DNA of 64,000 nt from the NCBI RefSeq assembly GCF_900537065.1, contig NZ_UNRC01000002.1, positions 284,342-348,341 on the forward strand, read 5' to 3'. Positions 45,309-60,307 of the stretch are shown one piece after another (the stretch's first letter is position 1; each line of letters begins with the position of its first letter). Position numbers and translations under genes: made by a program. The DNA is from Sphingorhabdus sp. Alg239-R122 (GTDB lineage Bacteria; Pseudomonadota; Alphaproteobacteria; Sphingomonadales; Sphingomonadaceae). The notes beneath the pieces were generated by a model. The model was not told the origin of the DNA. It saw only the letters and a program-made list of their open reading frames with translations, and ran no database searches.

Positions 45309-45368
45309 GAAAATTCCTCCCAGTAAATTTTTCTTATTGGGAAGCAGGATTAGCAGGCGCGGCGGATT

Positions 45369-46353: not shown

Positions 46354-48185
46354 GCATCCCCCGCAAAGGCGACGCTGACCGCCTGCATCATGCCGGCGTG
46401 CATATGGTAGAGCAGGTGGCAGTGGAACGCCCAGTCGCCCGGCTCGTCGGTGGTGACATCAAAGCTGGCGCTGCTGCCCGGCTGGACGATCAGCGTGTGT
46501 TTTTTTGGCTGGTGATGGCCCTGTCCGTTGACGATTTCGAAAAACATGCCGTGCAGGTGGATGGGGTGCGCCATCATCGTGTCGTTGACCAGCTTCACCC
46601 GCACGCGTTCGTCATGGGCAAAGTGGATCGGGTCATCGCCCACTGCGCTGAATTTCTTCCCGTCGAAACTCCACATATAGCGTTCCATATTGCCGGTCAG
46701 GTGCAGCTCCATCTCACGCCCGGGCACGCGTTTGTGGTGGTCGGGTTCCAGCGAACGCAACATCCGGTAATTAAGCACCCGGTGCGGCACGTCATCCAGC
46801 CCCAGACCTGGATAGCCGGTGCGGTCGAGAGGATTCATGGCGACCATATCGATGCCGGGGCCGGTCTTGACCGTATCGGGCAGCCGTGACGTGTCGCGCA
46901 TATTCATGCCGCCTGCCATATCGTGACCGCTATGGTCCATCATTGGTTTTGCAGCTTCGATCGTGGTTTGCGTGCCATGTCCCATTGCGGTGTGGTCCAT
47001 TTTACCATCGTCCATATCGTCATGGCCCGTATCTGCTCCATGCTCCATGCCCGTCCCATGCCCCATATCTGTCATGGTCAGTAAAGGTGGATCGCGCAGC
47101 GGCGGGATAGCCGCCCTTGCGCCTGGCGTGCTTGTCAGCATGGCCGCTGCCATGCCGGAACGGTCCATGCTTTCGGCGATTAGTGCAATCGCACCCGCTT
47201 CGCGCGGACTGACAATCACATCATAGGTTTCGGCGACACCGATCTGCAGTTCGTCCACCTCGACCGGTTCCACGTCCTGCCCGTCGGCCTGCACCACCTG
47301 CATCGGCAGGCCGGGCAGGCGGATATTGAAAAATGTCATCGCGCTGCCATTGATGATGCGCAGCCGCACCCGTTCACCTGGCTGGTACGGCAACTCCAGG
47401 CCGTCCCCGGTGGCATAACCATTAATCATATAGCTATATGCCGGTGCGGATACATCGGCGATATCGGTGGGCATCATCCGCATGCGGCCCCACATGCGGC
47501 GCTGCTCCCCGCTGAAAGCATAATCGTCGCTGGCGCTGGTTTTCTGCCGGCTGAAATAACCTTCGCCGGTCTTCAGCTTTTTCATGATTGTGTGCGGGTG
47601 CATCGGCGTGAATTCGCTGAGCAGGATCACATGCTCACGGTCATATGCGACCGGGTCCGTGTCTGACGGGTCAATGATGATCGGGCCGTAATGGCCCATC
47701 TGTTCCTGCAGTCCTGAATGGCTGTGATACCAATAGGTGCCCGACTGGCGTACATCGAATTTGGCGGTGAAATGGCCGCCAGGCGCAATGCCCGGAAAGC
47801 TGATGCCCGGCACGCCGTCAAACTGGAACGGCAAAAGCAGCCCGTGCCAGTGCACCGAGCTGTCCTCGCGCAGCATGTTGTGGACCATCAGCTGTGCCTG
47901 CGTCCCTTCTTTCAGGCGGATCAACGGTCCCGGGATGCTGCCGTTGAGCGCAATGCCATGCCCGCTGCGCCCAGCCGCACTGAAGCGGCCCTCACCGATA
48001 TGCAGATGCACTTCCGGCCCGCTGAGTTCATCCATGCCTTTCCTGATCGCGCCATGGTGCTTTGCGCCGCGCATCTGCCCTTTCGCCCATGCGGGCATGG
48101 CGAGGCCGGAAGCGGCAGACAGCGCTGCGAGACTGCCAATCATCTGCCGTCTGGTAAGGCGGGGGGAAGTGATCGAATCCGTCAT
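46350..48185 (-). CDS. copA: Copper resistance multicopper oxidase CopA
   Basis: A periplasmic cuprous oxidase of 611 residues. A twin-arginine leader (LTRRQMIGSLAALSA) exports it folded. Cupredoxin domains carry the copper ligands SVHWHG, YWYHSHSG, HPIHLHGMFFE and the type-1 centre FHCHLLYHMHAGMMQ. A Met/His-rich insert (about residues 365-430, with repeated GHGTGMEHG, HDDMDDGKMDH, DHSGHDMAGGMNM) should bind Cu(I). First gene of copAB; a palindromic CsoR-type operator lies in the promoter shared with the divergent csoR. Confidence 0.96.
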   Translation of the reverse strand: MTDSITSPRLTRRQMIGSLAALSAASGLAMPAWAKGQMRGAKHHGAIRKGMDELSGPEVHLHIGEGRFSAAGRSGHGIALNGSIPGPLIRLKEGTQAQLMVHNMLREDSSVHWHGLLLPFQFDGVPGISFPGIAPGGHFTAKFDVRQSGTYWYHSHSGLQEQMGHYGPIIIDPSDTDPVAYDREHVILLSEFTPMHPHTIMKKLKTGEGYFSRQKTSASDDYAFSGEQRRMWGRMRMMPTDIADVSAPAYSYMINGYATGDGLELPYQPGERVRLRIINGSAMTFFNIRLPGLPMQVVQADGQDVEPVEVDELQIGVAETYDVIVSPREAGAIALIAESMDRSGMAAAMLTSTPGARAAIPPLRDPPLLTMTDMGHGTGMEHGADTGHDDMDDGKMDHTAMGHGTQTTIEAAKPMMDHSGHDMAGGMNMRDTSRLPDTVKTGPGIDMVAMNPLDRTGYPGLGLDDVPHRVLNYRMLRSLEPDHHKRVPGREMELHLTGNMERYMWSFDGKKFSAVGDDPIHFAHDERVRVKLVNDTMMAHPIHLHGMFFEIVNGQGHHQPKKHTLIVQPGSSASFDVTTDEPGDWAFHCHLLYHMHAGMMQAVSVAFAGDA

Positions 48186-48216
48186 GAGCGTTGCGTCTCC
48201 TCGGGCATTCTTCTAT

Positions 48217-48233
48217 ATACCCCTATAGGGTAT
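48217..48233. promoter_or_regulatory. CsoR-type copper operator
   Basis: ATACCC-CTATA-GGGTAT, perfect 6-bp arms, in the 70-bp region between divergent copA and csoR. It matches the TACCC-N-GGGTA core recognised by CsoR-family repressors; apo-CsoR here would repress both directions until Cu(I) binds. Confidence 0.75.
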
Positions 48234-48255
48234 TTCAAGAAGGAATTTATACGCC

Positions 48256-48531
48256 ATGCATGCAAAGGATAATACAGGCGTTCTCAACCGTTTCCGCCGG
48301 ATCGAGGGACAGGTGCGCGGTATTGCGAAAATGGTGGAGGATGACCGCTATTGCATTGATATCCTTACCCAGCTCCAGGCGGTGAAGGCCGCGCTTGGCC
48401 GCGCGGAGAGCGAGATACTCAAAAACCATGCCGCGCATTGCGTCGCTGAAGCGATTGAAAGCGGAGGCGAGGCGGACCAGCGTGAGAAATTCACAGAGCT
48501 GGTCGAACTTTTCGAAAAGGCGAAGCGGTAG
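48256..48531 (+). CDS. csoR: CsoR/FrmR-family metal-sensing repressor
   Basis: A 91-residue all-helical repressor: NRFRRIEGQVRGIAKMVEDDRYCIDILTQLQAVKAAL, then HAAHCVAEAIESG. The Cys in RYCIDI and the His...Cys of HAAHC match the Cys-His-Cys Cu(I) site of CsoR rather than the formaldehyde-sensing FrmR. Divergent from copAB with a fitting palindrome between them, so copper sensing is the natural reading. Confidence 0.9.
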   Translation: MHAKDNTGVLNRFRRIEGQVRGIAKMVEDDRYCIDILTQLQAVKAALGRAESEILKNHAAHCVAEAIESGGEADQREKFTELVELFEKAKR

Positions 48532-48535
48532 GGGA

Positions 48536-48875
48536 GAGTCCTTTTTGATTTCACGGCGAAATGCCGAGTCTTTTGATCTCACGCTAGAATGCTTCGCATT
48601 CAGCTCCGATGGGGTTCCGGCCAATAAGGCCGGGCACGCAGTCGCGCTTGCGGTGCTGCTGGTCGCAGCACCGGGATTTCGCCATACGGAACATTCATGT
48701 GAAATTGCAGCAGCATGATTGCTATCGTTTCGCGCTGTCCACCGCTGCGCCTAGCAGCGCCGCAAGGCTGACCGGCCACCGGGCTTTGTTGGCCCGCCCC
48801 ACCGGAGGCATTCACGGAGTGAATTGCCGTGAGGTCAAACAGACTCAGCACCTCGCCGCGAGGTTAAACAGACTC
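48536..48875. repeat. Foldback element, copy 1
   Basis: About 340 bp non-coding element behind csoR. Both ends carry a doubled terminal motif: GAGTC-TTTTGAT(T/C)TCACG at 48536 and again near 48567, and its inverse CCG(T/C)GAGGT(C/T)AAACAGACTC near 48826 and again near 48857. Inside, GGTTCCGGCCAATAAGGCC (left) and the inverse GGCCCGCCCC...GGAGGCATTCACG (right) make two arms of about 85 bp around a GC-rich centre. It shares these words with copies at 56.8 and 58.3 kb. Only short ORFs, judged spurious. It fills the gap to the DUF2855 gene. Confidence 0.8.
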
Positions 48876-48939
48876 CGCTTGCCCGAATCTTGTAGTTATG
48901 CCAATTTAACCGTTCAATTAATTTTTGGAGCGCCTAGCC

Positions 48940-50022
48940 ATGACCCAGCAAACCCAGATCCATATCGACAAGAACAACCTCGCCCAGGCGGAGGCGGTCG
49001 TCAGTGACCTGCCAGAACTGGGCGCAGGCGAAGTGCTGCTGGAGATTGAGAGTTTTGCGCTGACGGCCAATAACATCACCTATGCGGTGATGGGCGAGCA
49101 GATGAAGTACTGGAATTTCTTTCCGTCGGGCGATGATGGCAAGGGCATTCTCCCCATGTGGGGACATGCGAAAGTGGCGGCATCGGGCCATGATAATTTC
49201 GCGGTAGGAGAGCGGCTTTACGGATACCTGCCCATGGGCAGTCACCTGGTCGTACAGCCGGGCAAAATATCGGACGGCGGCTTTATGGACATGGCGCCGC
49301 ACCGCCACGAAATGTCACCGCTGTACAGCCAGTACCGGCGGCTGGCAGCGGATCCGGCACACCATCCCGATTTTGAGGACGAGCGTTCACTATTTTCGCC
49401 GCTATTTGCCACCAGTTTCCTGATCGAGGATATGTTCCGCCGTGCGGAATGGCACGGAGCAGACGCGCTTGTCATGACCAGCGCGTCGTCCAAGACCGCG
49501 ATGGCGCTGGCGCACGTGGCACGCGCCTCCAGCCCTGGAATCAAGCGCATTGGCCTGACTTCGGCAGGCAATGTCGAGTTTACGAGAAACCTTGGCTTTT
49601 ATGATGAAGTTGTGGCCTATGGCGCAGTCGATACACTGGACGCGGATGTGCGCACCGTATCGGTAGATTTTGCAGGCAATGGCGAGGTGCTGGCTGCTAT
49701 CCACAGTCATTTCGACAGCAACCTCGCCTTTAGCTCACTGGTGGGTGCCACCCATGTAGATGCGCGCGGCGGTGCGCAGGGGCTGGCTGGCCCTGCGCCC
49801 ATATTGTTCTTTGCGCCGACCGCGATGCAGGAGCTGATCGCGGAGATTGGCCCAGCGGGCTTTGCTGAAGCAATGGCGGGCCGCTGGAATGGTTTCGTGA
49901 AGGATGTAGCGGGCCAGGTGACTGCCGAGCAGATTGACGGTGCCGGGGCCATCCGCGATGCGTACCGCGAAATGCTGGCAGGCAAGGTTGCACCCACACG
50001 CGGGCTGATGTGTTCTTTTTGA
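48940..50022 (+). CDS. DUF2855 family protein
   Basis: A 360-residue protein of the MDR-like DUF2855 family: a GroES-like first part (GAGEVLLEIESFALTANNITYAVMG, GKGILPMWGHAKV, VGERLYGYLPMGSHL) and a Rossmann-like second part (ALVMTSASSKTAMALAHVA). The typical Gly-rich NADP motif is altered, so an oxidoreductase activity is unproven. The ATG at 48940 has GGAG 9 nt upstream. The gene is bracketed by foldback copy 1 and a lone inverted element end. Confidence 0.88.
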   Translation: MTQQTQIHIDKNNLAQAEAVVSDLPELGAGEVLLEIESFALTANNITYAVMGEQMKYWNFFPSGDDGKGILPMWGHAKVAASGHDNFAVGERLYGYLPMGSHLVVQPGKISDGGFMDMAPHRHEMSPLYSQYRRLAADPAHHPDFEDERSLFSPLFATSFLIEDMFRRAEWHGADALVMTSASSKTAMALAHVARASSPGIKRIGLTSAGNVEFTRNLGFYDEVVAYGAVDTLDADVRTVSVDFAGNGEVLAAIHSHFDSNLAFSSLVGATHVDARGGAQGLAGPAPILFFAPTAMQELIAEIGPAGFAEAMAGRWNGFVKDVAGQVTAEQIDGAGAIRDAYREMLAGKVAPTRGLMCSF

Positions 50023-50024
50023 GG

Positions 50025-50042
50025 GTGAAATCAAAAAGACTC
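50025..50042. repeat. Lone inverted end of the foldback element
   Basis: GTGAAATCAAAAAGACTC starts 2 nt after the DUF2855 stop and is the reverse complement of the terminal motif GAGTC-TTTTTGATTTCAC that opens the foldback copies (48536, 56797). No further element sequence follows; the GST gene ends 6 nt later. Confidence 0.6.
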
Positions 50043-50047
50043 TACCT

Positions 50048-50665
50048 TCACTCCTGTGCGGGCATGAGTTCCATGTCGATTGTTTTTGCCGCCTTGTATG
50101 CATCGCGTTCGGATAGCCGCGCGGCATAGGTGGTGAAATTATCACGCTCTGGCAATGTTTTGAACTGCGTGCCCCAGATCACCTGCGACCCCATATAGAT
50201 GTCCGCCGCCGTGAAACGATCGCCGCATATATATTGGCGCTCGCCCAGCATACCATCCAGCACGTCCACCATCTGGTCATATGTGCCATATCCTGCCATG
50301 CGCGATTTTTCTTCGTCGGTGTGAAAACCCAGGCTGTTATTGATGATTGCCGCTTCGACCGGCCCGGCGCCATAGAACATCCAGCGGTAATAGTCCGCGC
50401 GCTCGTCCGCTGCTGGGGTGAGATTGCTGCCTGGAAAGACATCGGCCAGATAGGCGCAGATTGCGGCGCATTCGGTCACGATCTTACCATCATGCACAAT
50501 CGCAGGAACTTTGCCCATCGGGTTGACCGCCAGGTAATCAGGCGATTTCATGTCCTCATAGGCAATAATATGCTGGTCATAATCTGCGCCCGCTTCATGC
50601 AGCGCCCAACGGGCAATCTGTCCGCGTGACATGGGGTTGGTATAGAACTGGATCGTGCCCGACAT
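50048..50665 (-). CDS. Glutathione S-transferase family protein
   Basis: A 205-residue cytosolic protein: thioredoxin-like N-domain with the glutathione-binding NPMGKVPAIVHDGKIVTECAAIC (cis-Pro and Glu-Ser/Cys site; here ECAAI in place of ESxAI) and a helical C-domain (about 88-200, GDRFTAADIYMGSQV). The first-strand catalytic position reads YTNPMSRGQIARW, suggesting a Ser or Asn type enzyme. Substrate unknown. Single gene. Confidence 0.92.
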   Translation of the reverse strand: MSGTIQFYTNPMSRGQIARWALHEAGADYDQHIIAYEDMKSPDYLAVNPMGKVPAIVHDGKIVTECAAICAYLADVFPGSNLTPAADERADYYRWMFYGAGPVEAAIINNSLGFHTDEEKSRMAGYGTYDQMVDVLDGMLGERQYICGDRFTAADIYMGSQVIWGTQFKTLPERDNFTTYAARLSERDAYKAAKTIDMELMPAQE

Positions 50666-50877
50666 GATAATCTCCTGTTTCGAGTCCGTGCAGGCACTAT
50701 GCTATCACAGTCGGCGCTGAAAATCGGTCCTAAAAATCGAACAGCCAAATCCTCGCCAGTTGGCTCTGGTGAAATATCCTCCCTCTTTTGCGCGGGCATG
50801 AATTGGGCTAACATGCAAAAAGCGCCGCAATCGACCGGTGAACATCAACGCTGACGCGCAGCTGTTAAAGGCTTTGA

Positions 50878-52719
50878 ATGGAAGATAATTCGCACGAAAA
50901 CGGAGATGAGGGCAGGGCAGGCACACCGGCTGGGTTTGGCTGGCTGCGTGAGGCGCTGCTCGGTGAAATCGGCGAAGAGGCGCTGGCGGCGCTGGCGGAT
51001 GCGGCGGAACGGCGCGTTATTCCGGGCGGGCGCAACCTGGTTGAACAGGGCAATGATGCGAACGCGATATTTTTTGTCCAGACTGGCCGGTTCCGTGTTT
51101 TGGTAACGCAGCCCGATGGCGCACAGCGCATGGTGGCAGAGGTCAATGCCGGGGAACCGGTGGGCGAGCTTGCCTTTTTCGGGGGCGGCAAGCGCACGGC
51201 AACGGTGCAGGCAGCGCGCGATTCGATCGTGCTGGCGCTGGGGCGGGAAGCCTATGACGCGGTTGCGGCGGCGTATCCTGGAATCGTATCGGTCCTGCTG
51301 GGTGCGGTGTCTCGGCGGCTGGCCGCTGTGACCGCAAGAACGCCGCAGATGGAGGCGCAGGCAGCGCGCGTTATTGCTGTCCTGCCCGCCGGTAACAGCA
51401 ACTATCCGAAAGATTTTGTGCAGCAGGCAGGCCATGCGCTGCAACAGGTCATTGGCACAGCGCAGTCAGTGACGGCGGTGGCAGAGGGTGACGTGACAGC
51501 GGCGAGCAGCGCGGAATATGAGCGCTGGTTACAGAAGGAAGAGGAGCGTGGCGGCTATGTGCTGGTCGATGCGCGCGGAGACATGGACTGGTCGCGCATG
51601 GTGTGCCGTAATGCAGATGCATTGGTGATGGTGGCGGACGCTGCCATGGCTGACAGCACGCCATCCGACCTTGAGGAAGCGGCATTCAACTGGATCTGGC
51701 CTGAAAACCGGACGCTGGTAATGTTGCGCGAGACATCGGATACCGAAATTTCTGGCACGCTTCGCTGGATGCGGCCGCGTGAACCGCATCTGCACCTGCA
51801 CCTGGCGCGCGATGTTCCAGCAGATATGATGCGACTGGCGCGCTTTTTGGGCGGATGTGCGGTGGGCCTGGTACTGGCGGGCGGCGGCGCGCTGGGTTGT
51901 GCGCATCTGGGCATAGTGCAGGGGCTGCGTGATGCGGGCGTACCGATTGACTATATTGGCGGCACCAGCGCGGGCGCGGCGATGGGCGCGGCGATTGCGC
52001 AGGGCAACAATGTCGATGCCACGCTTGATCAGATGGAAGACATGTTTGTTGGTAAAAAAGCAATGAAACGTTTAACCGTTCCGGTTCATTCATTGCTTGA
52101 CCCGCGCGTTTTTGATGCCGAACTGAAAGAACGTTACAGCACCCGCGATATTACCGATCAGCAGGTCCCGTTTTTTGCCATATCGACCAATCTGACCACC
52201 AATGACCTGCATGTGCATGACAGCGGGCCGCTCTGGGAAGCGGTTCGCGCATCGGGATCGCTGCCGACCATATTGCCGCCCTTTATCGACGATGCGGGCA
52301 ATATCCTGGTGGACGGGGGCGTGCTGGACAATATCCCCGTGCTCACCATGCGGGCGCGCAAGGCAGGGCCGAATATTGTCGTGATGCTGAATGATGCCGG
52401 GCAGCCATGGCGTGTTGATGCTGCCTATGACAGCCTGCGCAGCCGGGGACAGCTACTGCGCGACGTCGTGCTGCGCCGCCGCGCACCTGATGATTTTCCG
52501 AAACTGGTCGATGTGATGCAGCGTTCCATGGTGGTGTCCAGCCGGATGGCCGCCCGCTCCATGCTGCGCGAAGGCGACATATTGCTTAGCCCGCCCATTG
52601 TGGATGGCATGCGGATACTTGACTGGCATCTGGGCCGCAAGCAGGCCGACATCGCGGCGGATTATGTCGCTGAACAGATAGCGGGAAATGCATCCTTGCA
52701 AAAATTGATAACCGAATAG
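50878..52719 (+). CDS. Patatin-like phospholipase with N-terminal cyclic-nucleotide-binding domain (NTE-like)
   Basis: A 613-residue protein resembling neuropathy-target-esterase-type lysophospholipases. N-terminal cNMP-binding-like domain (residues about 15-140; GEPVGELAFFGGGKRTATVQA), a middle domain (about 145-310), and a patatin domain (about 320-490) with oxyanion loop AGGGALGCAHLG, nucleophile Ser in GGTSAGAAMG, and catalytic Asp in DGGVLDNIP. No clear membrane helix. It should hydrolyse phospholipids or lysophospholipids, gated by a bound ligand. Its last codons coincide with a 21-bp direct repeat found again at 54466. Confidence 0.93.
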   Translation: MEDNSHENGDEGRAGTPAGFGWLREALLGEIGEEALAALADAAERRVIPGGRNLVEQGNDANAIFFVQTGRFRVLVTQPDGAQRMVAEVNAGEPVGELAFFGGGKRTATVQAARDSIVLALGREAYDAVAAAYPGIVSVLLGAVSRRLAAVTARTPQMEAQAARVIAVLPAGNSNYPKDFVQQAGHALQQVIGTAQSVTAVAEGDVTAASSAEYERWLQKEEERGGYVLVDARGDMDWSRMVCRNADALVMVADAAMADSTPSDLEEAAFNWIWPENRTLVMLRETSDTEISGTLRWMRPREPHLHLHLARDVPADMMRLARFLGGCAVGLVLAGGGALGCAHLGIVQGLRDAGVPIDYIGGTSAGAAMGAAIAQGNNVDATLDQMEDMFVGKKAMKRLTVPVHSLLDPRVFDAELKERYSTRDITDQQVPFFAISTNLTTNDLHVHDSGPLWEAVRASGSLPTILPPFIDDAGNILVDGGVLDNIPVLTMRARKAGPNIVVMLNDAGQPWRVDAAYDSLRSRGQLLRDVVLRRRAPDDFPKLVDVMQRSMVVSSRMAARSMLREGDILLSPPIVDGMRILDWHLGRKQADIAADYVAEQIAGNASLQKLITE

Positions 52720-52720
52720 G
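52700..52720 (+). repeat. 21-bp direct repeat, left copy (end of the patatin gene)
   Basis: AAAAATT-R-ATAACC-R-AATAGG, spanning the final codons and TAG of the phospholipase gene; 19 of 21 bases match the copy at 54466-54486. Together they flank the two-lipoprotein pair. Confidence 0.5.
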
Positions 52721-52795
52721 CACAATAGATTACATATTTTTAATTATGGAATCTCTGCATCGCCGCCTTAGTTTTCGACAACATAGGGGGCTGTT

Positions 52796-53548
52796 ATGCA
52801 AAAGATTTCAATATTTATCACTGCATTTTCATTGCTGCTTGCGGGCTGTAGCACGCGCGGCGAACTGCTGACGCTGAAGCGTGACAATTTGTTGCAGGTT
52901 GAGCGAAATATGCTGCAGGTTCGTGAAAATGCTCAGGCGGCGCTTTATAATCCTGGCGATTATGACCTGTACCTAAGCCTTAATCGCAGTAACTTTGATG
53001 CGATTCTTTCCGGATTTGACAATAGCATGATTGGCATAAAGGTGGGCCGGCGGGACGTTGACGTTACCCTGAATTCCGCGCGCATGAATTTTCGTGCCGG
53101 CAGCCCTGGAATAATGCTCGATGCAAAGGCGAGTGACAAAGGTTCTGGTGTGGAAGCTGCGCTTAAACTGGACTCACGCCTGTTGCTGGAAGCCGATCCG
53201 GAACAGCCAGGGCAATATAATATGCGCATTGTGGCCACGCGCGTCGTGCCGGACCTGCGATGGGGCATATTCAATTTTACGAAAGCGCGGTTTGTGCGCG
53301 ATATTCTGGCTCTTGAAGCAGTTCGATTTACCGAGAAGCTCCCGGTTGTAACGCTACCGCTGGCACAGGATTTCGCGGTAGGCGCTAATGCTTCCGTGCG
53401 GCAGGTCATATTGCCAACGGGCAATCGCAGCTCAATCACCGGCAATGTGTCCACGCCCGCGAACAAGGTTGAAGGCAGAGTCGCCGTCAAGCAGATCGTT
53501 TTCCTGAAAAACGGTGTGCATATTTTTGCAAATGTGGAGGGGCTTTGA
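52796..53548 (+). CDS. Lipoprotein of unknown function (first of a pair)
   Basis: A 250-residue protein with a lipobox LLLAGC (Cys about 18), a short heptad-like stretch (LKRDNLLQVERNMLQVRENAQ) and an all-beta-looking domain (GIKVGRRDVDVTLNSARMNF, VKQIVFLKNGVHIFANVEG) reminiscent of lipid-binding tubular (SMP/BPI-like or DUF4403-like) folds. The mature protein lacks Cys. It overlaps the next lipoprotein gene by 4 nt (ATGA), so the two probably form a complex or act in one envelope process. Function unknown. Confidence 0.72.
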   Translation: MQKISIFITAFSLLLAGCSTRGELLTLKRDNLLQVERNMLQVRENAQAALYNPGDYDLYLSLNRSNFDAILSGFDNSMIGIKVGRRDVDVTLNSARMNFRAGSPGIMLDAKASDKGSGVEAALKLDSRLLLEADPEQPGQYNMRIVATRVVPDLRWGIFNFTKARFVRDILALEAVRFTEKLPVVTLPLAQDFAVGANASVRQVILPTGNRSSITGNVSTPANKVEGRVAVKQIVFLKNGVHIFANVEGL

Positions 53549-54438
53549 TGAAACGCTATATCACCATGGGAGTCAGTATTGCAGTCTTGCTCTTTCTTGC
53601 CGGATGCCAGTCCTTGGCAGGTGGTAATGCCGGACTGGAAAGGGAGATTGCACAGATTGAAACGCGGGTCAGCAACCTTGAGTCGGATATTGTGCAATCC
53701 ACACCGGATATATCGGCATCGACCGCCGCGCTACGAACGAAAATGAAATACCGTCCGCTAGCCTCTTGGGCAGAGCGGTTTTCGGCAATGCCCAGTGCCA
53801 ATCGTACATTACGTTTCCAGCAAACCCGTAAGAGGAGATCAATACACCGGCGGCGGGAAAGGTGCCGGCTTACCGGGAGAGAGCGGGATACGGAAAATGC
53901 CTTTATACATGAAAATGATTCCACACGCGCCGCTCTCGTCCTGAAAAACTTTACTGTCACGTCGCGCAATGATGGGTTGATACTGACTGGTCGGCTCGAT
54001 TTTGATGGGCGTACACAGGTGGCAGGGACTGCACGCAATAAATGCTTCGGTGGTTGGTCTCCCACAGTGTCAATAGGTGTGCCCGTGCAAGCAGACGAAA
54101 CGGTTAAATTCAAACTGACTCTGTCACAGGCAGAACAAGGTAGCCTGCGTTATAATATGGATAATATTGCGCCGGAAACTATCGGTGCGAGGCTAAGCAC
54201 CCGGGTTGCAGGCTTTAATCTACGCACTACCATGCGCATCAAGGGGATGTTGGGCCGGTTGGTGTCTGGTGAAGTGCCGCTCCTGTTTGGAAATACTGGC
54301 GAAATCATGCTGCCGAATGGGGAGCCTGTTCCTTACAGGATCAGTACCACCAATCCGCAATTTTCGAGTGATATGACAGGAGTGGAACTGGTCAGTGATG
54401 TAGAAATTATTGTTGGTGACAGTGCAGTTGGCAGGTAA
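53545..54438 (+). CDS. Lipoprotein of unknown function (second of a pair), with an odd Arg-rich segment
   Basis: A 297-residue protein: lipobox LFLAGC (Cys about 21), a predicted coiled coil (LEREIAQIETRVSNLESDIVQ), a globular half with LVLKNFTVTSRNDGLILTGRLDFDG and ending in VELVSDVEIIVGD. Residues about 93-118 (RKRRSIHRRRERCRLTGRER in part) are unusually basic; in the next frame the same DNA (about 53828-53905) reads a more ordinary peptide containing TPAAGKVPAYRERAGYGKC. Two compensating frameshifts are possible, leaving the rest intact. Otherwise pairs with the preceding lipoprotein. Confidence 0.65.
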   Translation: MMKRYITMGVSIAVLLFLAGCQSLAGGNAGLEREIAQIETRVSNLESDIVQSTPDISASTAALRTKMKYRPLASWAERFSAMPSANRTLRFQQTRKRRSIHRRRERCRLTGRERDTENAFIHENDSTRAALVLKNFTVTSRNDGLILTGRLDFDGRTQVAGTARNKCFGGWSPTVSIGVPVQADETVKFKLTLSQAEQGSLRYNMDNIAPETIGARLSTRVAGFNLRTTMRIKGMLGRLVSGEVPLLFGNTGEIMLPNGEPVPYRISTTNPQFSSDMTGVELVSDVEIIVGDSAVGR

Positions 54439-54465
54439 GGCGGCGTCATGAATATTAACCTGTAG

Positions 54466-54486
54466 AAAAATTAATAACCAAATAGG
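54466..54486 (+). repeat. 21-bp direct repeat, right copy
   Basis: Matches the end of the phospholipase gene at 52700-52720 in 19 of 21 bases (two purine transitions); it even preserves a K-L-I-T-x-stop reading. It sits 28 nt after the second lipoprotein stop. Confidence 0.5.
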
Positions 54487-54496
54487 TAAAAATATC

Positions 54497-54525
54497 TTGA
54501 CATTGTCACGCTCTTTATGTAGATA
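54497..54525 (+). promoter_or_regulatory. Promoter candidate of the GTA-like head module
   Basis: Perfect -35 TTGACA (54497-54502), 17-bp spacer, weak -10 TAGATA. The -35 is embedded in TGAC-ATT-GTCA (54498-54508), a perfect dyad that could be an operator. About 150 nt of AT-rich leader follow before the TerS-like start at 54677. Confidence 0.45.
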
Positions 54526-54676
54526 AGACGAACATCGCGATAGTGTGATTCGGACGTGCAGCGGGCATGTCATATAATCTGCGAACCGGCAGTGAAATTC
54601 GCATGGATCGCCATTCTGTATTTTTGAATCATATAACCCTTTTCTCAGTTTCAGGGGAGAGAAGGATTGTACCAAA

Positions 54677-55432
54677 ATGGTAAAAAATAATGTCAAAACA
54701 AACCAAAGAAAACTATTTGGTAAAAAGCGCAAAAAACAGTTTCTGAGGCATCTCCGCAGGCACCGCGTGGTGAAACATGCAGCGCGGGCAGCAGGTGTTG
54801 GCATGAGCTGCGTCTATGAGCATCGCAAAAAGGATAGTGATTTCGCGTGCAAATGGGATGCCGCTTTGGGCGTGAAAAGTGAAATGGTGCCGCAGATTAT
54901 CAATCCTGGCGGTCACGGTGCACGTACTTTCATGGTGAAGCAGTGCCACAATGCATTTTCCGGCGCGCAAAAGGAAAAGTTCCTGCGCAAGCTGGCCGAG
55001 ACGTGCAATATTACGCAGTCCGCCGAATATGCAGGGACAACGCGCAAGACAGTGCTGTGTCACAGGCAAAAGGATCCGGTGTTTCAGGCCGCGTATCGGC
55101 AGGTGATCGATAATGCCCATGCCGAACTGTCCATGGACCTGCTGGCGCGGGCGCGCTTTGGCACGCCCAAACCGGTAATGTCGGGCGGTGTGCAAACGGC
55201 CACGGTAAAGGTGCATAATGACAGTTTTGCATTGCGCGTGCTTGAACGGCTGGACCGCATGTCTGAAAACCGTGTCGCTGCGGCACAGGCAAAGGCGCAG
55301 GCTGAGAACGGACCGGATTCGATCCGGGCGCGGCTTGACCGGCGGCTGGCCGATATGCGTGCCCGCCTGCTCGAAACCCGGCCTGAGCTGGTGCAGGGCG
55401 CGGGCAGCAATGATGGCGATACAGTTGAATGA
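54677..55432 (+). CDS. TerS-like small terminase / DNA-binding protein with duplicated HTH
   Basis: A 251-residue protein directly upstream of TerL. Two tandem homologous segments are seen: about 14-62 (FLRHLRRHRVVKHAARAAGV...VYEHRKKDSDFACKWDAAL) and about 98-146 (FLRKLAETCNITQSAEYAGT...VLCHRQKDPVFQAAYRQVI), each an HTH pattern of small terminases; a helical, Arg-rich C-terminal part follows. In the RcGTA, g1 holds this place and role: binding DNA and recruiting TerL. The first 40 codons are Lys-rich and AT-rich. Stop overlaps the TerL start (ATGA). Confidence 0.72.
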   Translation: MVKNNVKTNQRKLFGKKRKKQFLRHLRRHRVVKHAARAAGVGMSCVYEHRKKDSDFACKWDAALGVKSEMVPQIINPGGHGARTFMVKQCHNAFSGAQKEKFLRKLAETCNITQSAEYAGTTRKTVLCHRQKDPVFQAAYRQVIDNAHAELSMDLLARARFGTPKPVMSGGVQTATVKVHNDSFALRVLERLDRMSENRVAAAQAKAQAENGPDSIRARLDRRLADMRARLLETRPELVQGAGSNDGDTVE

Positions 55433-56796
55433 TACGGCGTATATATGATGGCACACCCTCAATCGGCGAACGGTTGGCGGGGGCAGATCCGGCGGCGCTG
55501 CAGAAATATCTGGATGAAATGCCTGATGATGAACTGCGCGGGCTTTATTTCAGCTGGGCGACATGGGGCCGCAAGGAACAGCAGGTGCCGCCGGGCAACT
55601 GGCGCATATGGATGATCATGGCGGGGCGCGGCTTTGGCAAGACGCGCAGCGGAGCCGAATGGGTGCGCGATATTGCCGTACGTGATGGCAATGCCCGCAT
55701 CGCACTGGTCGCGGCGAACATGCATGAGGCGCGCAGCGTGATGGTGGAAGGCGCGGCGGGGATAGCCGCGGTGACGCCGGAAGCGGAGCAGCCGATATAT
55801 GAACCTTCATTACGCCGGCTGCGCTGGGCGAGCGGTGCGCGTGCCACGCTCTATTCGGCCGCCGATCCGGACAGCCTGCGCGGCGGTGAGCACAGCCATG
55901 GCTGGTGCGATGAAATTGGCAAACGGGACCATGCGCCAACGGGGGTTTCGACCCGCGCGGAGGCGGCATGGGACAATCTTCAGATGGGCCTGCGCGCCGG
56001 GACACGGCCGCAGGTGCTGGCCACCACGACGCCGCGGCCCGTGCCGCTGGTGCAGCGGTTGGTGGATATGGATGATGACGGTGATGGCACATTGGCGATC
56101 ACGCGCGGCACCACCTATGCCAATGCCACGCATCTTGCCGGCGCGTTTGTGGGCATGATGACCGCGCAATATGGCGCGGGGCAGTTGGGGCGGCAGGAAC
56201 TGCATGGCGAGTTGCTGAGAGATGTGGAAGGCGCCTTGTGGAGCCGGAGCCTGATCGAGCGGTGCCGCGCTGAACCGGAAAGCAGGGAATATATGCGCAT
56301 CATAATCGCGGTGGATCCGCCTGCGAGCAGCCGTGGCGATGCGTGCGGCATTATTGCTGCGGGTTTACTGGCAGATGGCAATGCGCACGTGCTGGCCGAT
56401 GCCAGTGTGGACGGAGCCAGTCCGCATGTCTGGGCCGCTGCCGTAGCCAAAACCTATACCGCGTGGAAAGCGGACCGGGTGGTTGCCGAAGCGAACCAGG
56501 GCGGCGATATGGTGCGGAGCGTTTTGCAGGCGGCAGATATGAACCTGCCCGTCCGGCTGGTCCATGCCCGCCGCGGCAAATCCGCCCGGGCGGAGCCGGT
56601 GGCGGCATTGTATGAGGCGGGCCGTGTGTTTCACGCAGGCCATTTCGGCAAGCTTGAGGATGAAATGTGCGGGCTTATGGCGGGCGGCAATTATATGGGC
56701 CCGGGAAGATCGCCGGACAGGGCCGATGCGTTGGTGTGGGCGCTGACGGAGTTGATGCTGGAAAGGCGCGTGGAACCGAGGGTGTGGGCCGGGTGA
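55429..56796 (+). CDS. Phage/GTA large terminase (DNA-packaging protein)
   Basis: ATP-driven DNA-packaging motor and nuclease, GTA g2-like. 455 residues: Walker A AGRGFGKTRSGAEW, Walker B region HSHGWCDEIGK, coupling ATTTPRPVPLV, then the RNase H-like nuclease with IIIAVDPPASSRGDACGI (metal Asp), DASVDGASP and SPDRADALVWALTEL. Full length without internal stops. Foldback copy 2 begins exactly behind its stop codon. Confidence 0.94.
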   Translation: MIRRIYDGTPSIGERLAGADPAALQKYLDEMPDDELRGLYFSWATWGRKEQQVPPGNWRIWMIMAGRGFGKTRSGAEWVRDIAVRDGNARIALVAANMHEARSVMVEGAAGIAAVTPEAEQPIYEPSLRRLRWASGARATLYSAADPDSLRGGEHSHGWCDEIGKRDHAPTGVSTRAEAAWDNLQMGLRAGTRPQVLATTTPRPVPLVQRLVDMDDDGDGTLAITRGTTYANATHLAGAFVGMMTAQYGAGQLGRQELHGELLRDVEGALWSRSLIERCRAEPESREYMRIIIAVDPPASSRGDACGIIAAGLLADGNAHVLADASVDGASPHVWAAAVAKTYTAWKADRVVAEANQGGDMVRSVLQAADMNLPVRLVHARRGKSARAEPVAALYEAGRVFHAGHFGKLEDEMCGLMAGGNYMGPGRSPDRADALVWALTELMLERRVEPRVWAG

Positions 56797-57101
56797 GAGT
56801 CTTTTGATTTCACGGCTATTTTTCGCTTATGCGAAAAGCCTCCAAATGGGTTCCGGCCAATAAGGCCGGGCGCGCAGTCGCGCTTGCGAGCGGCTAGTCG
56901 CCGCTCGGACTTGTGCCATACGGGACGATTCGCGGAACTGCGGTAACATGATTGCAGGCGTTTGGCGCTGTTCCGAGTTGCTTGTCGCAACCCGGCAAGG
57001 CCGACCGGCCGTCGCGGCTTACTGCCGCACCCCACCGGAGGTATTCACGAAGTGAATTGCCGCGAGGTCAAACAGACTCGGTTCGCCGTGAAATCAAAAA
57101 A
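56797..57101. repeat. Foldback element, copy 2 (terL-portal gap)
   Basis: Begins with GAGTC-TTTTGATTTCACGGC directly after the terL TGA and ends with GAGGTCAAACAGACTC (57064-57079) plus a second end GCCGTGAAATCAAAAAA (57085-57101), the inverse of the start. Internal words GGTTCCGGCCAATAAGGCC, CGCAGTCGCGCTTGCGAGC, GCCATACGG, CATGATTGC and the GGAGG-ATTCACG-AGTGAATTGCCG block are shared with copy 1. It fills the 340-bp gap before the portal gene; no gene of its own. Confidence 0.8.
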
Positions 57102-57136
57102 TAAGCATGACGATTAGTACATAAGGAACCCAAAAC

Positions 57137-58288
57137 ATGAACCTTTTCAAATCGCTGTCCCTCGCTTTCAAGGGTGGGGGTGGGCGTCCGGCTCTGTCCC
57201 GTTACGGGGGCGGTGCGGGCGTGATACCCACTTATGCCGAGGGCGTTTCATCTGGCGATGAAGCGCCCTTTTCTTATACGCGTGACGTTGAAGCGGCGTA
57301 CGAGCGCAATCCGGTGGCGCAGCGCGCGGTGCGGATTGTGACGGAAGGGATTGCGGGCGCGCCGCTTGCCGTTTCGGATGACCGTATCCGCGCGCTGGTC
57401 AGCGCCGCCAGTGCGGGGCAACCCTTGCTGGAGACGATCGCGGCGCACCTGTTGCTGCACGGCAATGCCTATGTGCAGGTCGCACGCGGGGGTGATGGAA
57501 TGCCGGCAGGGCTTTATGCGCTGCGCCCCGACCGGGTGACGGTTGAGGTTGATGTGCAGGGCTGGCCTGCCGCCTTTACCTATCGCGCCGGGGAAAACCA
57601 CACGCGATTCGATGCGGAAACACCGGACGGATACCCGCAGGTCATTCACATAAAAGGTTTTCATCCGTCGGATGACCATTACGGCCTGGGCTGTCTGGGC
57701 GCGGCGGCGGGGGCTGTGGCGGCGCACAATGCCGCCGCGCGCTGGAACGCGGCATTGCTGGGCAATGCGGCGCGGCCATCGGGCGCTTTGGTGCATGACG
57801 GGGGTGAGGGGGGCATGCCGCTGTCACCGGAGCAGTTTGACCGGCTGCGCGCAGAGCTGACCGCGACGTTTAGCGGCGCGCGCAATGCCGGGCGGCCGAT
57901 GGTGCTTGAAGGCGGTCTGAAATGGCAGCCGATCAGCCTGTCGCCTGCCGACATGGATTTTGTCGCGCTCAAAGCCGCGGCGGCGCGGGACATTGCGCTC
58001 GCATTTGGCGTGCCGCCCATGTTGCTCGGCCTGCCGGGTGACAATAGCTATGCCAATTACCGCGAGGCCAACCGCGCCTTGTGGCGGCTCACGCTGCTGC
58101 CGCTGTCGGGCAAGATACTGGACGCGCTGGCAGAAGGCTTGCGAGGCTGGTGGCCGGATGCGGCGCTGTCGGTCGATCTCGATAAAATCACCGCGCTTGC
58201 CGAGGACCGCGAACGGCTGTGGAAACAGGTGAATGCGGCGGAGTTTCTGAGCGATCAGGAAAAACGGAACATATTGGGAGTGAAATGA
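57137..58288 (+). CDS. HK97-family phage/GTA portal protein
   Basis: Forms the dodecameric portal ring through which DNA enters the head (GTA g3-like). 383 residues: NPVAQRAVRIVTEGIAGAPLAV, HLLLHGNAYVQVAR, the DDHYGLGCLGAAAGAVAAHNAA clamp helix region, GGLKWQPISLSPADMDF, and the stem/crown end with IALAFGVPPMLLGLPGDNSYANYREANRALWR. Somewhat shorter than typical, but intact. Flanked on both sides by foldback elements. Confidence 0.94.
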   Translation: MNLFKSLSLAFKGGGGRPALSRYGGGAGVIPTYAEGVSSGDEAPFSYTRDVEAAYERNPVAQRAVRIVTEGIAGAPLAVSDDRIRALVSAASAGQPLLETIAAHLLLHGNAYVQVARGGDGMPAGLYALRPDRVTVEVDVQGWPAAFTYRAGENHTRFDAETPDGYPQVIHIKGFHPSDDHYGLGCLGAAAGAVAAHNAAARWNAALLGNAARPSGALVHDGGEGGMPLSPEQFDRLRAELTATFSGARNAGRPMVLEGGLKWQPISLSPADMDFVALKAAAARDIALAFGVPPMLLGLPGDNSYANYREANRALWRLTLLPLSGKILDALAEGLRGWWPDAALSVDLDKITALAEDRERLWKQVNAAEFLSDQEKRNILGVK

Positions 58289-58310
58289 GGCGCGGCGGCG
58301 GTGCTGCGAA

Positions 58311-58583
58311 TTTTTTGATTTCACGGCTAGTTCGCTTTGCTCACGCCTCCAAATGGGTTCGGCGCAATAGGCGCCGGCGGCCGGTCGTCCTTGCCGAGTT
58401 GCTGGACGCAACTCGGGATATCGCGACACGGTAGCGATCATTTTGTTTCGACTAAACGAGCGACTCCATTTGGCAAAATCCCGAACGGCGAATTCGCCGT
58501 TCGCAAGCGCGACTGCGCGTCGGGCCTTATTGGCCCGAACCCCATCGGAGGCATTCACGTAGTGAATTGCCGTGAGATCAAAT
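58311..58583. repeat. Foldback element, copy 3 (portal-DUF6127 gap)
   Basis: Left end TTTTTTGATTTCACGGC (58311-58327), right end GCCGTGAGATCAAAT (58569-58583). The right arm (about 58500-58583) reversed and complemented matches the left arm of copy 1 closely, including GGGCCAATAAGGCCC and GCGCAGTCGCGCTTGCG; the left arm has the variant GGTTCGGCGCAATAGGCGC. The centre (about 58400-58500) is not shared with copies 1 and 2. Fills the 314-bp gap; no ORF of merit. Confidence 0.78.
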
Positions 58584-58602
58584 AACGAAAAGGAAAAACC
58601 CC

Positions 58603-58911
58603 ATGAACAACGAAGATATGCTCGCCCGCCTGATGGCACAGGCGCAAAGTGAAGGCAGTGACCTTGTGACACTGCGCGCGATTGTGGAGGAAGCCAGCGA
58701 CCTGGGCGCGGGCCGTGTGCTGGAGCGGCTGCATCTATCAGATGAGACCGCGCAGGATGATCTCGCCGAAATCCGTGAACTGCTGCAGGCCTGGCGCGAT
58801 GCCAAGGCAAGCGCGTGGAAAGCGGCCATCACATGGGCGGTACGCGGCACGCTGGCGTTGCTCTTGATCGGCATTGCGTACCGCCTTGGCCTCGCGGACC
58901 TGATCGGGTGA
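58603..58911 (+). CDS. DUF6127 family protein
   Basis: A 102-residue protein: acidic helical N-part (MLARLMAQAQSEGSDLVTLRAIVEEASDLGA, AQDDLAEIRELLQAWRDAK) and one C-terminal membrane helix (ALLLIGIAYRLGLADLIG). I recall DUF6127 as a small protein between portal and protease genes in Sphingomonadales GTA clusters. Stop overlaps the protease GTG (GTGA). Function unknown; a membrane-linked assembly role is a guess. Confidence 0.8.
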   Translation: MNNEDMLARLMAQAQSEGSDLVTLRAIVEEASDLGAGRVLERLHLSDETAQDDLAEIRELLQAWRDAKASAWKAAITWAVRGTLALLLIGIAYRLGLADLIG

Positions 58912-59318
58912 GCGGCATCCGTTTCGCAGGCTATGCCGCGATATTTGACCGGATTGACCGTGGCGGCGACATGATCCGCCCGGGCGCTTTTGCGCGCTCG
59001 CTTGAACGTTCAGGCGGCTCCCTGCCCGTTTATTGGCAGCACCGCCCGGGCAGCGCGGTCGGCCATGTGACCTATGCGCGTGAGGATGCACGCGGCCTGT
59101 GCGTCATTGGCGACATTGCGGAGGGCAGCGAAGCGGCGGCCATGCTGGCGCGCGGCGCACGCGGCCTCAGCTTCGGCTACCGCGTCCGGCAGGCACGTGG
59201 CACGGCCCCGCGCGAACTCACGGAAGTCGATATTGTCGAGGTCAGCCTGGTCCACACCCCGATGATGCCTATGGCGCGGGTGCACCTGGCAATAAAGGAG
59301 AGCTTGCAAATTGCCTGA
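58908..59318 (+). CDS. HK97-family prohead protease
   Basis: Matures the capsid by cleaving the delta/scaffold domain (GTA g4-like). The GTG at 58908 overlaps the DUF6127 stop; 136 residues: RFAGYAAIFDRIDRGGDMIRPGAF, LPVYWQHRPGSAVGHV (catalytic His), GLSFGYRV (catalytic Ser region), LTEVDIVEVSLVHTPMMPMA. The core is intact and short, as in GTA proteases. Confidence 0.92.
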   Translation: MSGIRFAGYAAIFDRIDRGGDMIRPGAFARSLERSGGSLPVYWQHRPGSAVGHVTYAREDARGLCVIGDIAEGSEAAAMLARGARGLSFGYRVRQARGTAPRELTEVDIVEVSLVHTPMMPMARVHLAIKESLQIA

Positions 59319-59341
59319 CTGTTATATATCCATATAACAGT
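59318..59341. promoter_or_regulatory. 24-nt AT-rich perfect dyad before the DUF5694 gene
   Basis: Arms ACTGTTATAT/ATATAACAGT (10 bp, perfect) with the 4-nt centre ATCC, beginning at the last base of the protease stop and ending 35 nt before the DUF5694 ATG. Looks like an operator of a dimeric regulator and overlaps the likely promoter. Its AT content stands out in the GC-rich head module. Confidence 0.6.
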
Positions 59342-59376
59342 AACACAGTGAAAATATTCCCTGGGGGAGTGTCCTG

Positions 59377-60210
59377 ATGAAAAAGATGATTGCTGCGATA
59401 TGCCTGTTTTCCCTGTCTGCATTGCCTGCGAAAGCAGAAGAGGCACAGGCGGAGCCGGTGCGGGTGATGGTCCTGGGAACCTATCATTTTGCCAATCCCG
59501 GGCTTGATCTCAATAATGCGAAAGCGGATGATGTGCTCGCCGAAAAACGCCAGCGCGAACTGGCCGCGCTGGCGGTCACGCTAAAGACGTTTTCGCCGGA
59601 CGCGGTGGCTGTCGAGGCGCGGGCTGCGCCGCCCTATGCGGATAGCGGCTATATGGCTTTTACGCCCGCGGACCTTGGCAGGGAAAGGAACGAAACCGTA
59701 CAGATCGGGTATCGCACAGCCCATCTGGCGGGGATTGACCGGGTTTATGCGATTGACGAACAACCGGAAGGAGACGAGCCTGACTATTTCCCCTATGGCG
59801 CTGTCGCCGCGCAGGCGGAAGAAACGGGTGATGCCGAACGGCTGAAGAAAATGTCTGATTTCGCCCCGGTGCTTGCGCGCTTTGAAAAGATGCAGGAAAA
59901 ACAGACCGTCCCGCGGCTGCTTTCATTTTGGAACAGCGATGCAGTACCCACCGCCTTTTACTGGGATATCATGACGATCGGCAAAGGCGAAAAACAGACC
60001 GGCGCGGAACTTGCCGCCTACTGGTTCATGCGCAATGCGAAGATTTTTGGCAAGCTCACCCAGGTGACCCGGCCCGGCGACCGCGTGATCGTGGTCTATG
60101 GCAGCGGCCATAATTACTGGCTGAAAGAAATGGTCAGGAACACACCTGGCTATGAACTCGAAGTCGTGCAACCCTATCTGGAAAAAGCCGATGTGATGCT
60201 ACGTGAATAA
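59377..60210 (+). CDS. DUF5694 domain protein, exported
   Basis: A 277-residue protein with a Sec signal peptide (MIAAICLFSLSALPAKAEE) and the DUF5694 domain, related to TraB/GumN-like proteins: RVMVLGTYHFANPGLDLNN at the start, DAVAVEARAAPP, IGYRTAHLAGIDRVYAIDE, and VIVVYGSGHNYWLKEMV near the end (two conserved His/Glu sites, possibly metal binding). Not a phage structural protein. It has its own palindromic upstream site and a terminator behind it, and splits protease from capsid, like a moron. Start chosen after GGGGGAG. Confidence 0.82.
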   Translation: MKKMIAAICLFSLSALPAKAEEAQAEPVRVMVLGTYHFANPGLDLNNAKADDVLAEKRQRELAALAVTLKTFSPDAVAVEARAAPPYADSGYMAFTPADLGRERNETVQIGYRTAHLAGIDRVYAIDEQPEGDEPDYFPYGAVAAQAEETGDAERLKKMSDFAPVLARFEKMQEKQTVPRLLSFWNSDAVPTAFYWDIMTIGKGEKQTGAELAAYWFMRNAKIFGKLTQVTRPGDRVIVVYGSGHNYWLKEMVRNTPGYELEVVQPYLEKADVMLRE

Positions 60211-60231
60211 GACAATATGAGTGTGAACGAA

Positions 60232-60257
60232 AAGCCGCCCAACCGGGCGGTTTTTTT
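60232..60257 (+). terminator. Rho-independent terminator between DUF5694 and capsid genes
   Basis: Stem CCGCCC/GGGCGG with loop AACC, A-run before and T7 after it. It would stop read-through from the upstream head genes into the capsid gene. Confidence 0.9.
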
Positions 60258-60307
60258 GTGCCTGAAACAATCCCCCAAACCCCAAACCCAAAAAGGAAAT
60301 TACCCCT

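What the first reader, a model, noticed from the sequence alone, without database searches (positions are those of the whole stretch)
48536..58583. Family of ~270-340 bp foldback elements in three copies within 10 kb
Three intergenic spacers (48536-48875, 56797-57101, 58311-58583) share a non-coding element bounded by TTTGAT(T/C)TCACG and its inverse CGTGA(G/A)(G/A)TCAAA. The right arm of copy 3, reversed, matches the left arm of copy 1 over about 80 bp, so each copy is one long inverted repeat of two ~85-bp arms around a variable centre. Shared words include CCGGCCAATAAGGCC and CGCAGTCGCGCTTGCG. Copies 1 and 2 have doubled ends, as if one element inserted into another's end or the ends are tandemly repeated. 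This looks like a MITE-like or structured-RNA family without transposase.
Basis: seen in the sequence. Interest (0 to 1): 0.72.

Follow-up and report, generated by a model that had tools for sequence, protein, structure and literature searches.

The report
Modular hairpin repeats at gene ends
The three spacers hold members of a real family of mirror-image hairpin repeats; each half is a string of small hairpins that, in many other alphaproteobacteria, sits right behind tRNA genes, so the window's elements look like paired copies of a mobile 'gene-end tail' rather than chance similarity.

Summary
The three copies belong to a family with 18, 35 and 43 half-elements ('arms') in the home genome and two congeners; 76 of these 96 form inverted pairs, mostly ~270 bp. 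Each arm is a conserved chain of hairpins: 17 of 21 pairs show double changes in 74 arms from outside the genus. Outside the genus arms are mostly single or in direct tandem, and 33 of 73 distinct arms start 1-16 nt behind a tRNA gene (chance ~0.1). In the genus, pairs lie a median 11 nt from gene 3' ends; in seven cases the element supplies the stop codon. Orthologous copies differ by swapped hairpins and by flipped polarity; the two arms carry different H3 hairpins in 38 of 39 readable pairs. Stems show no excess of G-U over A-C (tRNA control 10:0), so the fold looks kept as DNA palindrome rather than as RNA. No mobility enzyme or Rfam family was linked. Best reading: a non-autonomous modular foldback repeat that gathers at transcript 3' ends and works like REP/BIME hairpins. 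Function and way of spreading are inferred; no target duplication was seen.

The parts
48536..48571 (+). Copy 1 outer left end: GAGTC + CTTTTTGATTTCACGG.., a second end outside the inner element
   Evidence: sequence; end motif listing
48572..48671 (+). Copy 1 left arm (H3 type GCGC, here ACGC..GCGC)
   Evidence: R1 match 93.9 bits; modules
48742..48839 (-). Copy 1 right arm (H3 type GGCC)
   Evidence: R1 match 91.4 bits
48840..48875 (-). Copy 1 outer right end (second end, ending GACTC)
   Evidence: sequence
56797..56801 (+). Copy 2 GAGTC, immediately after the stop codon of the terminase gene (TGA 56794-56796)
   Evidence: sequence; GAGTC before 51 of 93 genus arms
56803..56906 (+). Copy 2 left arm (H3 type GCGC)
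   Evidence: R1 match 75.3 bits
56975..57072 (-). Copy 2 right arm (H3 type GGCC)
   Evidence: R1 match 81.5 bits
57073..57101 (-). Copy 2 extra right end (tandem second end)
   Evidence: sequence
58314..58414 (+). Copy 3 left arm (H3 type GGCC: polarity opposite to copies 1 and 2)
   Evidence: R1 match 81.7 bits
58483..58582 (-). Copy 3 right arm (H3 type GCGC)
   Evidence: R1 match 97.1 bits
55429..56796 (+). Phage-type terminase large subunit gene upstream of copy 2
   Evidence: Pfam Terminase_6C / Terminase_6N
57137..58288 (+). Phage portal gene between copies 2 and 3
   Evidence: Pfam Phage_portal

Best explanation
A non-autonomous, dispersed foldback repeat built from a ~100-nt unit (arm): TTTGATYTCACGG, hairpin H1, CTCC..GGG, hairpin H2, hairpin H3, often a further hairpin H4. 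SHOWN: the unit occurs singly or in direct tandem right behind tRNA genes, and in some cases behind stop codons, in several alphaproteobacterial orders; in the window's genus it occurs mostly as inverted pairs, many placed a few nt behind stop codons; orthologous copies differ by whole swapped hairpins; pair cores differ in polarity. INFERRED: (1) copies land or survive at transcript 3' ends, where a terminator hairpin would usually stand; (2) there they act as 3'-end hairpin blocks, as REP/BIME elements do: slowing ribosomes at the stop codon, halting 3' exonucleases and/or helping transcription end, e.g. setting terminase and portal levels apart in this phage-type operon; (3) the stems are kept perfect at the DNA level, by recombination or template switching between palindromic copies; (4) spread needs a trans-acting enzyme not identified here.
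For: 93 arms in 35 genus sources; 79 of them make 41 inverted pairs, 33 of these 264-292 bp long. 40 pair sites: 26 tandem, 10 convergent, 4 divergent spacers, versus 98/17/50 for the other gaps in the same loci by subtraction (p 0.005); distance to gene 3' ends median 11 nt (28 of 46 within 15), to 5' ends median 96 nt (4 of 34 within 15), p 1e-4. Seven gene ends use the element's TGA as stop. tRNA association: 33 of 73 distinct non-genus arms within 20 nt of a tRNA 3' end and 11 more 21-400 nt behind one; expected fraction for the 20-nt class 0.0016. Fold: A1 15 of 21 pairs with double changes, covariation 0.352 versus 0.027-0.053 when slid; A3 17 of 21, 0.336 versus 0.020-0.041. Cassette swap: at site b70 the junctions match and the rest is alike between G001 and G002, but left H1 is another hairpin. 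At site b69b/c77b the genome without the element has a plain GC hairpin in its place. REP hairpins within 15 nt of a stop codon were reported to lower translation (PMC12306157, passages).
Against: No expression, termination or stability data. 3' placement could reflect only removal of harmful insertions elsewhere. A first, cruder gene calling gave 16 tandem, 14 convergent, 10 divergent, i.e. no clear avoidance of divergent spacers. Four pairs lie in divergent spacers and several are >100 nt from any stop. 29 of 73 non-genus arms have no tRNA called within 400 nt, though seven of these follow a tRNA 3'-end-like remnant by eye. In the window's genus none of the 96 arms was found beside a tRNA. 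No mobility enzyme found. Gene calls are mine (hexamer score), sites are partly orthologous and so not independent.
Confidence: 0.5

Rival explanations
1. Purely selfish MITE: the pair is the minimal derivative of an unseen DNA transposon with ~20-bp ends (GAGTC..TTTGATTTCACGG). It has no function, and its 3' location only shows where insertions do least harm. GAGTC fits GANTC, recalled as the site of the CcrM methylase, so movement could be coupled to replication.
For: Terminal inverted repeats, 8, 13 and 17 inverted pairs per genome (counted from the list), nested copies, stubs after loss; GAGTC within 12 nt of 51 of 93 genus arms versus 0.002 expected per arm and 1 of 74 outside the genus.
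Against: No long pair of exact ends with a gene between that would suggest an autonomous copy among 23 exact ends in the home genome (read by position only); no clean target duplication; single arms behind tRNAs are not explained by a two-ended transposon; many sites are old, shared by congeners whose flanks are 74-93% identical.
Confidence: 0.3
2. Structured RNA: the arm is a transcribed 3' trailer or sRNA whose RNA fold is under selection, as tRNA trailers or 3'-UTR sRNAs are.
For: Strong covariation; position directly behind tRNA and coding 3' ends, where it should be transcribed. Below-threshold Rfam matches spanning tRNA plus arm exist: sX4 sRNA at 41.1 and 28.9 bits (gathering 70; E 2e-5 and 0.02) and permuted tmRNA at 34.2 bits (gathering 47).
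Against: G-U 15 versus A-C 30 at paired positions (10:12 without inner H1; 3:4 in the best 45 arms without inner H1), against 10:0 in tRNA acceptor stems of the same loci; no Rfam family at its gathering score over an arm; whole hairpins swapped for unrelated ones at orthologous sites.
Confidence: 0.13
3. Recombination (attachment) site: the tRNA-side arms are att sites of integrative elements, and the pairs are leftovers of such integrations.
For: tRNA 3' ends are classic integration sites (recalled); Leu and Ser tRNAs dominate (20 of 33); tandem arms carry tRNA-3'-end-like copies.
Against: None of the 17 downstream proteins tested outside the genus (of 21 candidates listed for 25 loci) matches an integrase or recombinase in Pfam; 10 match other families, one of them below its cut-off, and 7 match none. 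Seven tRNA species are used; 0 matches to the arm pattern in viral contigs, 0 matches of copy 2 in plasmids or phages.
Confidence: 0.05

Closest known systems
REP / BIME / REPIN elements (enterobacteria, pseudomonads)
   Same: Dispersed intergenic palindromes, partly within 15 nt of the stop codon (PMC12306157 passages); mosaic build from palindromic units (recalled); no coding capacity.
   Different: Arm of ~100 nt with several different hairpins instead of one 20-40-nt palindrome (recalled size); inverted pairs; tRNA-tail singles; no RAYT partner (a Y1 transposase domain in G000 only, on a contig without arms; none in G001, G002).
MITEs such as NEMIS/Correia (Neisseria), RUP, BOX, ERIC (recalled)
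   Same: Small, terminal inverted repeats or foldback, many copies, no own transposase.
   Different: No defined target duplication or autonomous parent found; hairpins swapped as cassettes; the half-element has a life of its own behind tRNA genes.
Tandem tRNA-tail repeats of the E. coli tyrT operon (RtT; recalled, not tested)
   Same: Repeats directly behind a tRNA gene that carry a copy of the tRNA 3' end.
   Different: Here several tRNA species and many genera share one conserved multi-hairpin unit.

Membership tests
MITE | terminal inverted repeats, <600 bp, multi-copy, non-coding | tested here: met
   coding capacity judged and sequence only
MITE | target-site duplication at insertion | tested here: inconclusive
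   element-less or near-empty sites b76, b72, b148, c78, b70, b71 aligned; boundaries blurred by divergence, b72 sites carry end stubs
MITE | autonomous transposon with the same ends | tested here: inconclusive
   23 exact ends in G000 read by position: short pairs, doubled ends or lone ends; inexact ends and other genomes not searched for it
REPIN/RAYT | RAYT (Y1) transposase in the genome, next to repeats | tested here: not met
   PF01797: 1 match in G000 on contig C16, 0 in G001 and G002; no arm listed on C16
REP/BIME (works like) | extragenic, behind coding 3' ends, rare in divergent spacers | tested here: met
   4 of 40 divergent, median 11 nt from 3' ends; the cruder gene calling gave 10 of 40 divergent
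Structured RNA family in Rfam | match at gathering score | tested here: not met
   window 48000-59500 and five non-genus loci: none over the arms; sub-threshold sX4 and permuted-tmRNA matches span tRNA plus arm
Structured RNA | compensatory change through G-U pairs | tested here: not met
   G-U not in excess of A-C; tRNA control 10:0; small counts, alignment fitted to the model
Structured RNA / 3' trailer | transcribed and processed | not testable with these tools
   no RNA data
att sites of integrative elements | integrase gene beside the site | tested here: not met
   0 of 17 downstream proteins

The most novel reading that the evidence does not exclude
A hitherto unnamed superfamily of 'tail elements' in Alphaproteobacteria. 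One multi-hairpin unit colonises the 3' ends of tRNA and protein genes, standing where a terminator hairpin would stand. In some lineages it is doubled into inverted pairs that evolve by cassette exchange of whole hairpins and by inversion, under a rule that the two arms carry non-complementary H3 hairpins, so that side hairpins form a cross rather than one long stem. The fold would be read as DNA (cruciform or single strand) by a host factor or transposase.
Probability: 0.3. Interest if true: 0.8.

Novelty: new variant of a known kind. Interest (0 to 1): 0.62.

Why it matters
Small structured repeats are common but usually treated as isolated, genome-specific families. Here one unit links two habitats, tRNA tails in several orders and mRNA tails in one genus, and offers natural experiments: orthologous copies that differ by one swapped hairpin or by flipped polarity, and sites where a plain GC hairpin, a stub or another sequence stands in its place. 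That makes testable whether such repeats are selfish or serve as exchangeable 3'-end devices, and how palindrome stems stay perfect without RNA-type selection.

Tried and rejected
Chance GC-rich similarity: rejected. Known RNA family: none at gathering score over an arm. RAYT-driven REPIN: no partner. Integration sites of islands: no integrase among 17 proteins. Phage or plasmid cargo: no matches. A clean target-site duplication: sought at element-less sites, not obtained; the 'empty' b72 sites turned out to hold single-end stubs, i.e. loss, not pre-insertion state. Heterotypic H3 as proof of selection: not claimed, because descent of a polar core with occasional inversion explains it equally, and the 41 pairs include three that reuse a right arm, two with an unreadable H3 and many orthologues. 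A first, longest-ORF gene calling (16 tandem, 14 convergent, 10 divergent) was dropped for a hexamer-scored one because many short or antisense ORFs had been taken. An alignment (A2) was dropped because H2 was shifted; A1 was used for the model. For the tRNA count I gave the model 60 of 75 non-genus loci, leaving out 15 that repeat places already in the set. Literature: searches gave 0 papers; one search listed 7, one search listed 9; of 1,975 papers only 10 and of 74 only 15 were listed; none treats this element by title and start of abstract. Two papers were seen in passages only. Most subscription journals are not in that library, so absence in print is not shown.
Full report
OBSERVATION. 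The three spacers hold one element each, folding 7-12 s.d. better than shuffles. Copy 1 has doubled ends on both sides, copy 2 on the right only, copy 3 none. BLAST with copy 2 gives 17 rows in the home genome G000 (2.5 Mb, 21 contigs), with copy 1 18 rows, several rows per copy. In a set of 59 genomes (home genome plus 58 relatives) 12 had a match to copy 2: the home genome, two congeners G001 and G002 with full-length ones, and nine others with short matches only (at most 87 nt of the query).

THE UNIT IS THE ARM. A pattern for the outer part of the arm (about one chance match by my own arithmetic for even base composition) gave 51 stretches in genome contigs: 26 in the two congeners and 25 in Maricaulis, Robiginitomaculum, Kordiimonadaceae, Hyphomicrobiaceae, Pseudaquidulcibacter, Sphingosinithalassobacter and other Alphaproteobacteria (orders Maricaulales, Kordiimonadales, Hyphomicrobiales, Caulobacterales). 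In 18 of those 25 the model found one arm only, in 7 more; L086 is an inverted pair. In 16 of 25 the arm begins 2-16 nt behind a tRNA gene (Leu 8, Ser 5, Met 2, Ala 1). 46 arms, 24 from the genus and 22 from outside, were aligned: 15 of 21 pairs of the hairpin chain show double changes, covariation score 0.352 against 0.027-0.053 for slid controls. A covariance model R1 found 18, 35 and 43 arms in G000, G001, G002 (150 of 830-1175 candidates scored, so lower bounds); by position 16, 26 and 34 of them form 8, 13 and 17 inverted pairs, one of these a fragment. In a class sample it matched 11 of 190 genomes including the home one (only 21 candidates scored per genome). In six genomes reached through named loci it found 72 arms; same-strand neighbours occur, and none of the 72 forms an inverted pair by position.

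tRNA TAILS. 60 of 75 non-genus loci, the other 15 repeating places already in the set, gave 74 matches, 73 distinct. Of these, 33 start 1-16 nt behind a tRNA 3' end (Leu 11, Ser 9, Thr 4, Met 3, Ala 3, Arg 2, Glu 1), 11 lie 21-400 nt behind one, 29 have no tRNA called; the expected fraction for the first class is 0.0016. The pool includes the pattern loci, but the blind class sample alone shows the same: 10 of its 20 loci (8 distinct places: Arg, Ser, Ser, Thr, Leu, Thr, Met, Ala) have a tRNA directly 5' of the arm or array, 10 do not. Of the 29 without tRNA, seven follow tRNA-3'-end-like remnants by eye (L107, L116, L206, L212, L215, L218, L241); L248 and L249 follow what reads as a stop codon. 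Between tandem arms one sees in some loci a copy of the tRNA 3' end with CCA (L102, L109, L212).

PAIRS IN THE GENUS. 93 R1 matches in 35 sources make 41 inverted pairs from 79 arms; three pairs reuse a right arm already counted and one is a fragment; 33 of 41 are 264-292 bp. With hexamer-scored genes, 40 pair sites are 26 tandem, 10 convergent, 4 divergent; other gaps of at least 60 bp in the same loci are 98/17/50 by subtraction (p 0.005). A cruder gene calling had given 16/14/10. The TTTGA end lies a median 11 nt from gene 3' ends (28 of 46 within 15) but 96 nt from 5' ends (4 of 34). In seven cases the stop codon is the element's own TGA. GAGTC stands within 12 nt before TTTGA in 51 of 93 arms (expected 0.002 per arm; 1 of 74 outside the genus), so copy 2, counted from its GAGTC, starts at the base after the stop codon. 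Sites are not independent: many are orthologous between the three genomes. None of the 96 arms lies beside a tRNA.

EVOLUTION OF COPIES. Many sites are shared between congeners with flanks 74-93% identical. At 11 such sites, orthologous arms carry the same H1 hairpin in 18 of 38 comparisons (random arms 13%), the same H2 in 14 of 37 (27%), the same H3 in 22 of 38 (38%). Site b70 is the clearest swap: same junctions, rest alike, but left H1 is a different hairpin in G001 and G002. At sites a62, a64b, W1, W3 and b69b both arms switch H3 type together, as an inversion of the core would do; independent re-insertion in the same spacer is not excluded, above all for W3 and b69b, where junctions differ. 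In pairs, one arm has a GCGC-like and the other a GGCC-like H3 in 38 of 39 readable pairs; by similarity 1 of 41 same against 16.9 expected, 0 of 2000 permutations; H2 shows no such rule (12 versus 10.6) and H1 at most a weak one (3 versus 5.6). By eye the distant pair in L086 follows the same H3 rule, with H1 alike in both arms.

LOSS AND REPLACEMENT. Site a65 in G000 is a short palindrome TTTGATTTCACGGTGAGATCAAA where G002 has a full pair. Site b72: G002 keeps a left-end stub and G000 a right-end stub behind the stop codon. Site b69b/c77b in G000 holds a plain GC hairpin, and copy 2's spacer in G002 holds a different sequence with its own internal repeat. Site b76/c84 is without element in G000. 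No exact pre-insertion site with target duplication was obtained.

DNA OR RNA. At paired positions of 74 non-genus arms, G-U cells number 15 and A-C cells 30 (10 and 12 without inner H1; 3 and 4 in the best 45 rows without inner H1). In acceptor stems of 35 CCA-ending tRNAs from these loci they are 10 and 0 (Fisher p 1e-4, or 0.004 without inner H1). So the stems change as whole Watson-Crick units. Caveat: A3 is fitted to the model, weak matches are included, and counts are small.

PARTNERS. Y1 transposase domain: one in G000, none in the congeners. 17 downstream proteins of non-genus loci: no integrase or transposase in Pfam. No matches in viral contigs, plasmids or phages. No Rfam family at gathering score over the arms; sub-threshold matches of sX4 and permuted tmRNA span tRNA plus arm in L102, L109 and L110.

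MECHANISM. I hold it most likely (0.5) that this is a non-autonomous modular foldback repeat that settles at transcript 3' ends and acts there as hairpin block, like REP/BIME. REP hairpins within 15 nt of a stop codon were reported to lower translation (PMC12306157, passages seen). Copies 2 and 3 would then separate expression of terminase, portal and the next gene in this phage-type cluster (Terminase_6, Phage_portal, Phage_capsid). Placement, fold, swaps and polarity changes are shown; function and way of spreading are inferred.

NOVELTY. The paper searches named in Tried and rejected found no description; the library lacks most subscription journals and two searches showed only the top of long lists. 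I rate it a new variant of a known kind (small structured intergenic repeats), with unusual features: one unit in tRNA tails and mRNA tails, inverted pairing, cassette swaps.

Noticed in passing
L190-L199 (G002, G001, G000): A second foldback family in the genus shares the end module CTCACGGC + TTTTTCGC..GCGAAAA hairpin but continues, in most of these loci, as a long GGCACC(A/G)GCCC..palindrome.
   Followed up: partly
L072:5090-5554, L074:12896-13222, L075:5043-5510: Centres of three G001 elements contain another foldback repeat (AATCCTCCCTG..GGGGAGGGGGACC..GGTGGAGGGG).
   Followed up: no
L076:5118-5509: Centre holds GTCATCCTGAACTTGTTTCAGGATC and its inverse, a different repeat.
   Followed up: no
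window 45385-48530: In G001 the flank left of the W1 orthologue matches window 44188-45384, so this ~3-kb block (copper-type genes by reading, not tested) is missing there and the element marks the edge of an indel.
   Followed up: no
window 52668-54636: G002 has an arm (L145:12909-13008) where G000 has ~2 kb with two ORFs: again an element at an indel edge.
   Followed up: no
L071, L080, L082, L184, L186: An inner element abuts an outer arm cut in its H2 loop (..CTGGGTAAG / CTTACCCAG..), on both sides only in L184.
   Followed up: partly
L208, L209, L214: Arm-like matches not at tRNAs but next to short palindromes such as CGATTCTTATCGAATCG.
   Followed up: no
L203:1927-2499: The protein downstream of a tRNA-Ser tail matches the Shedu defence domain SduA_C.
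   Followed up: no
window 55429-61570: Terminase, portal and capsid genes in gene-transfer-agent-like order (recalled); membership not tested.
   Followed up: no
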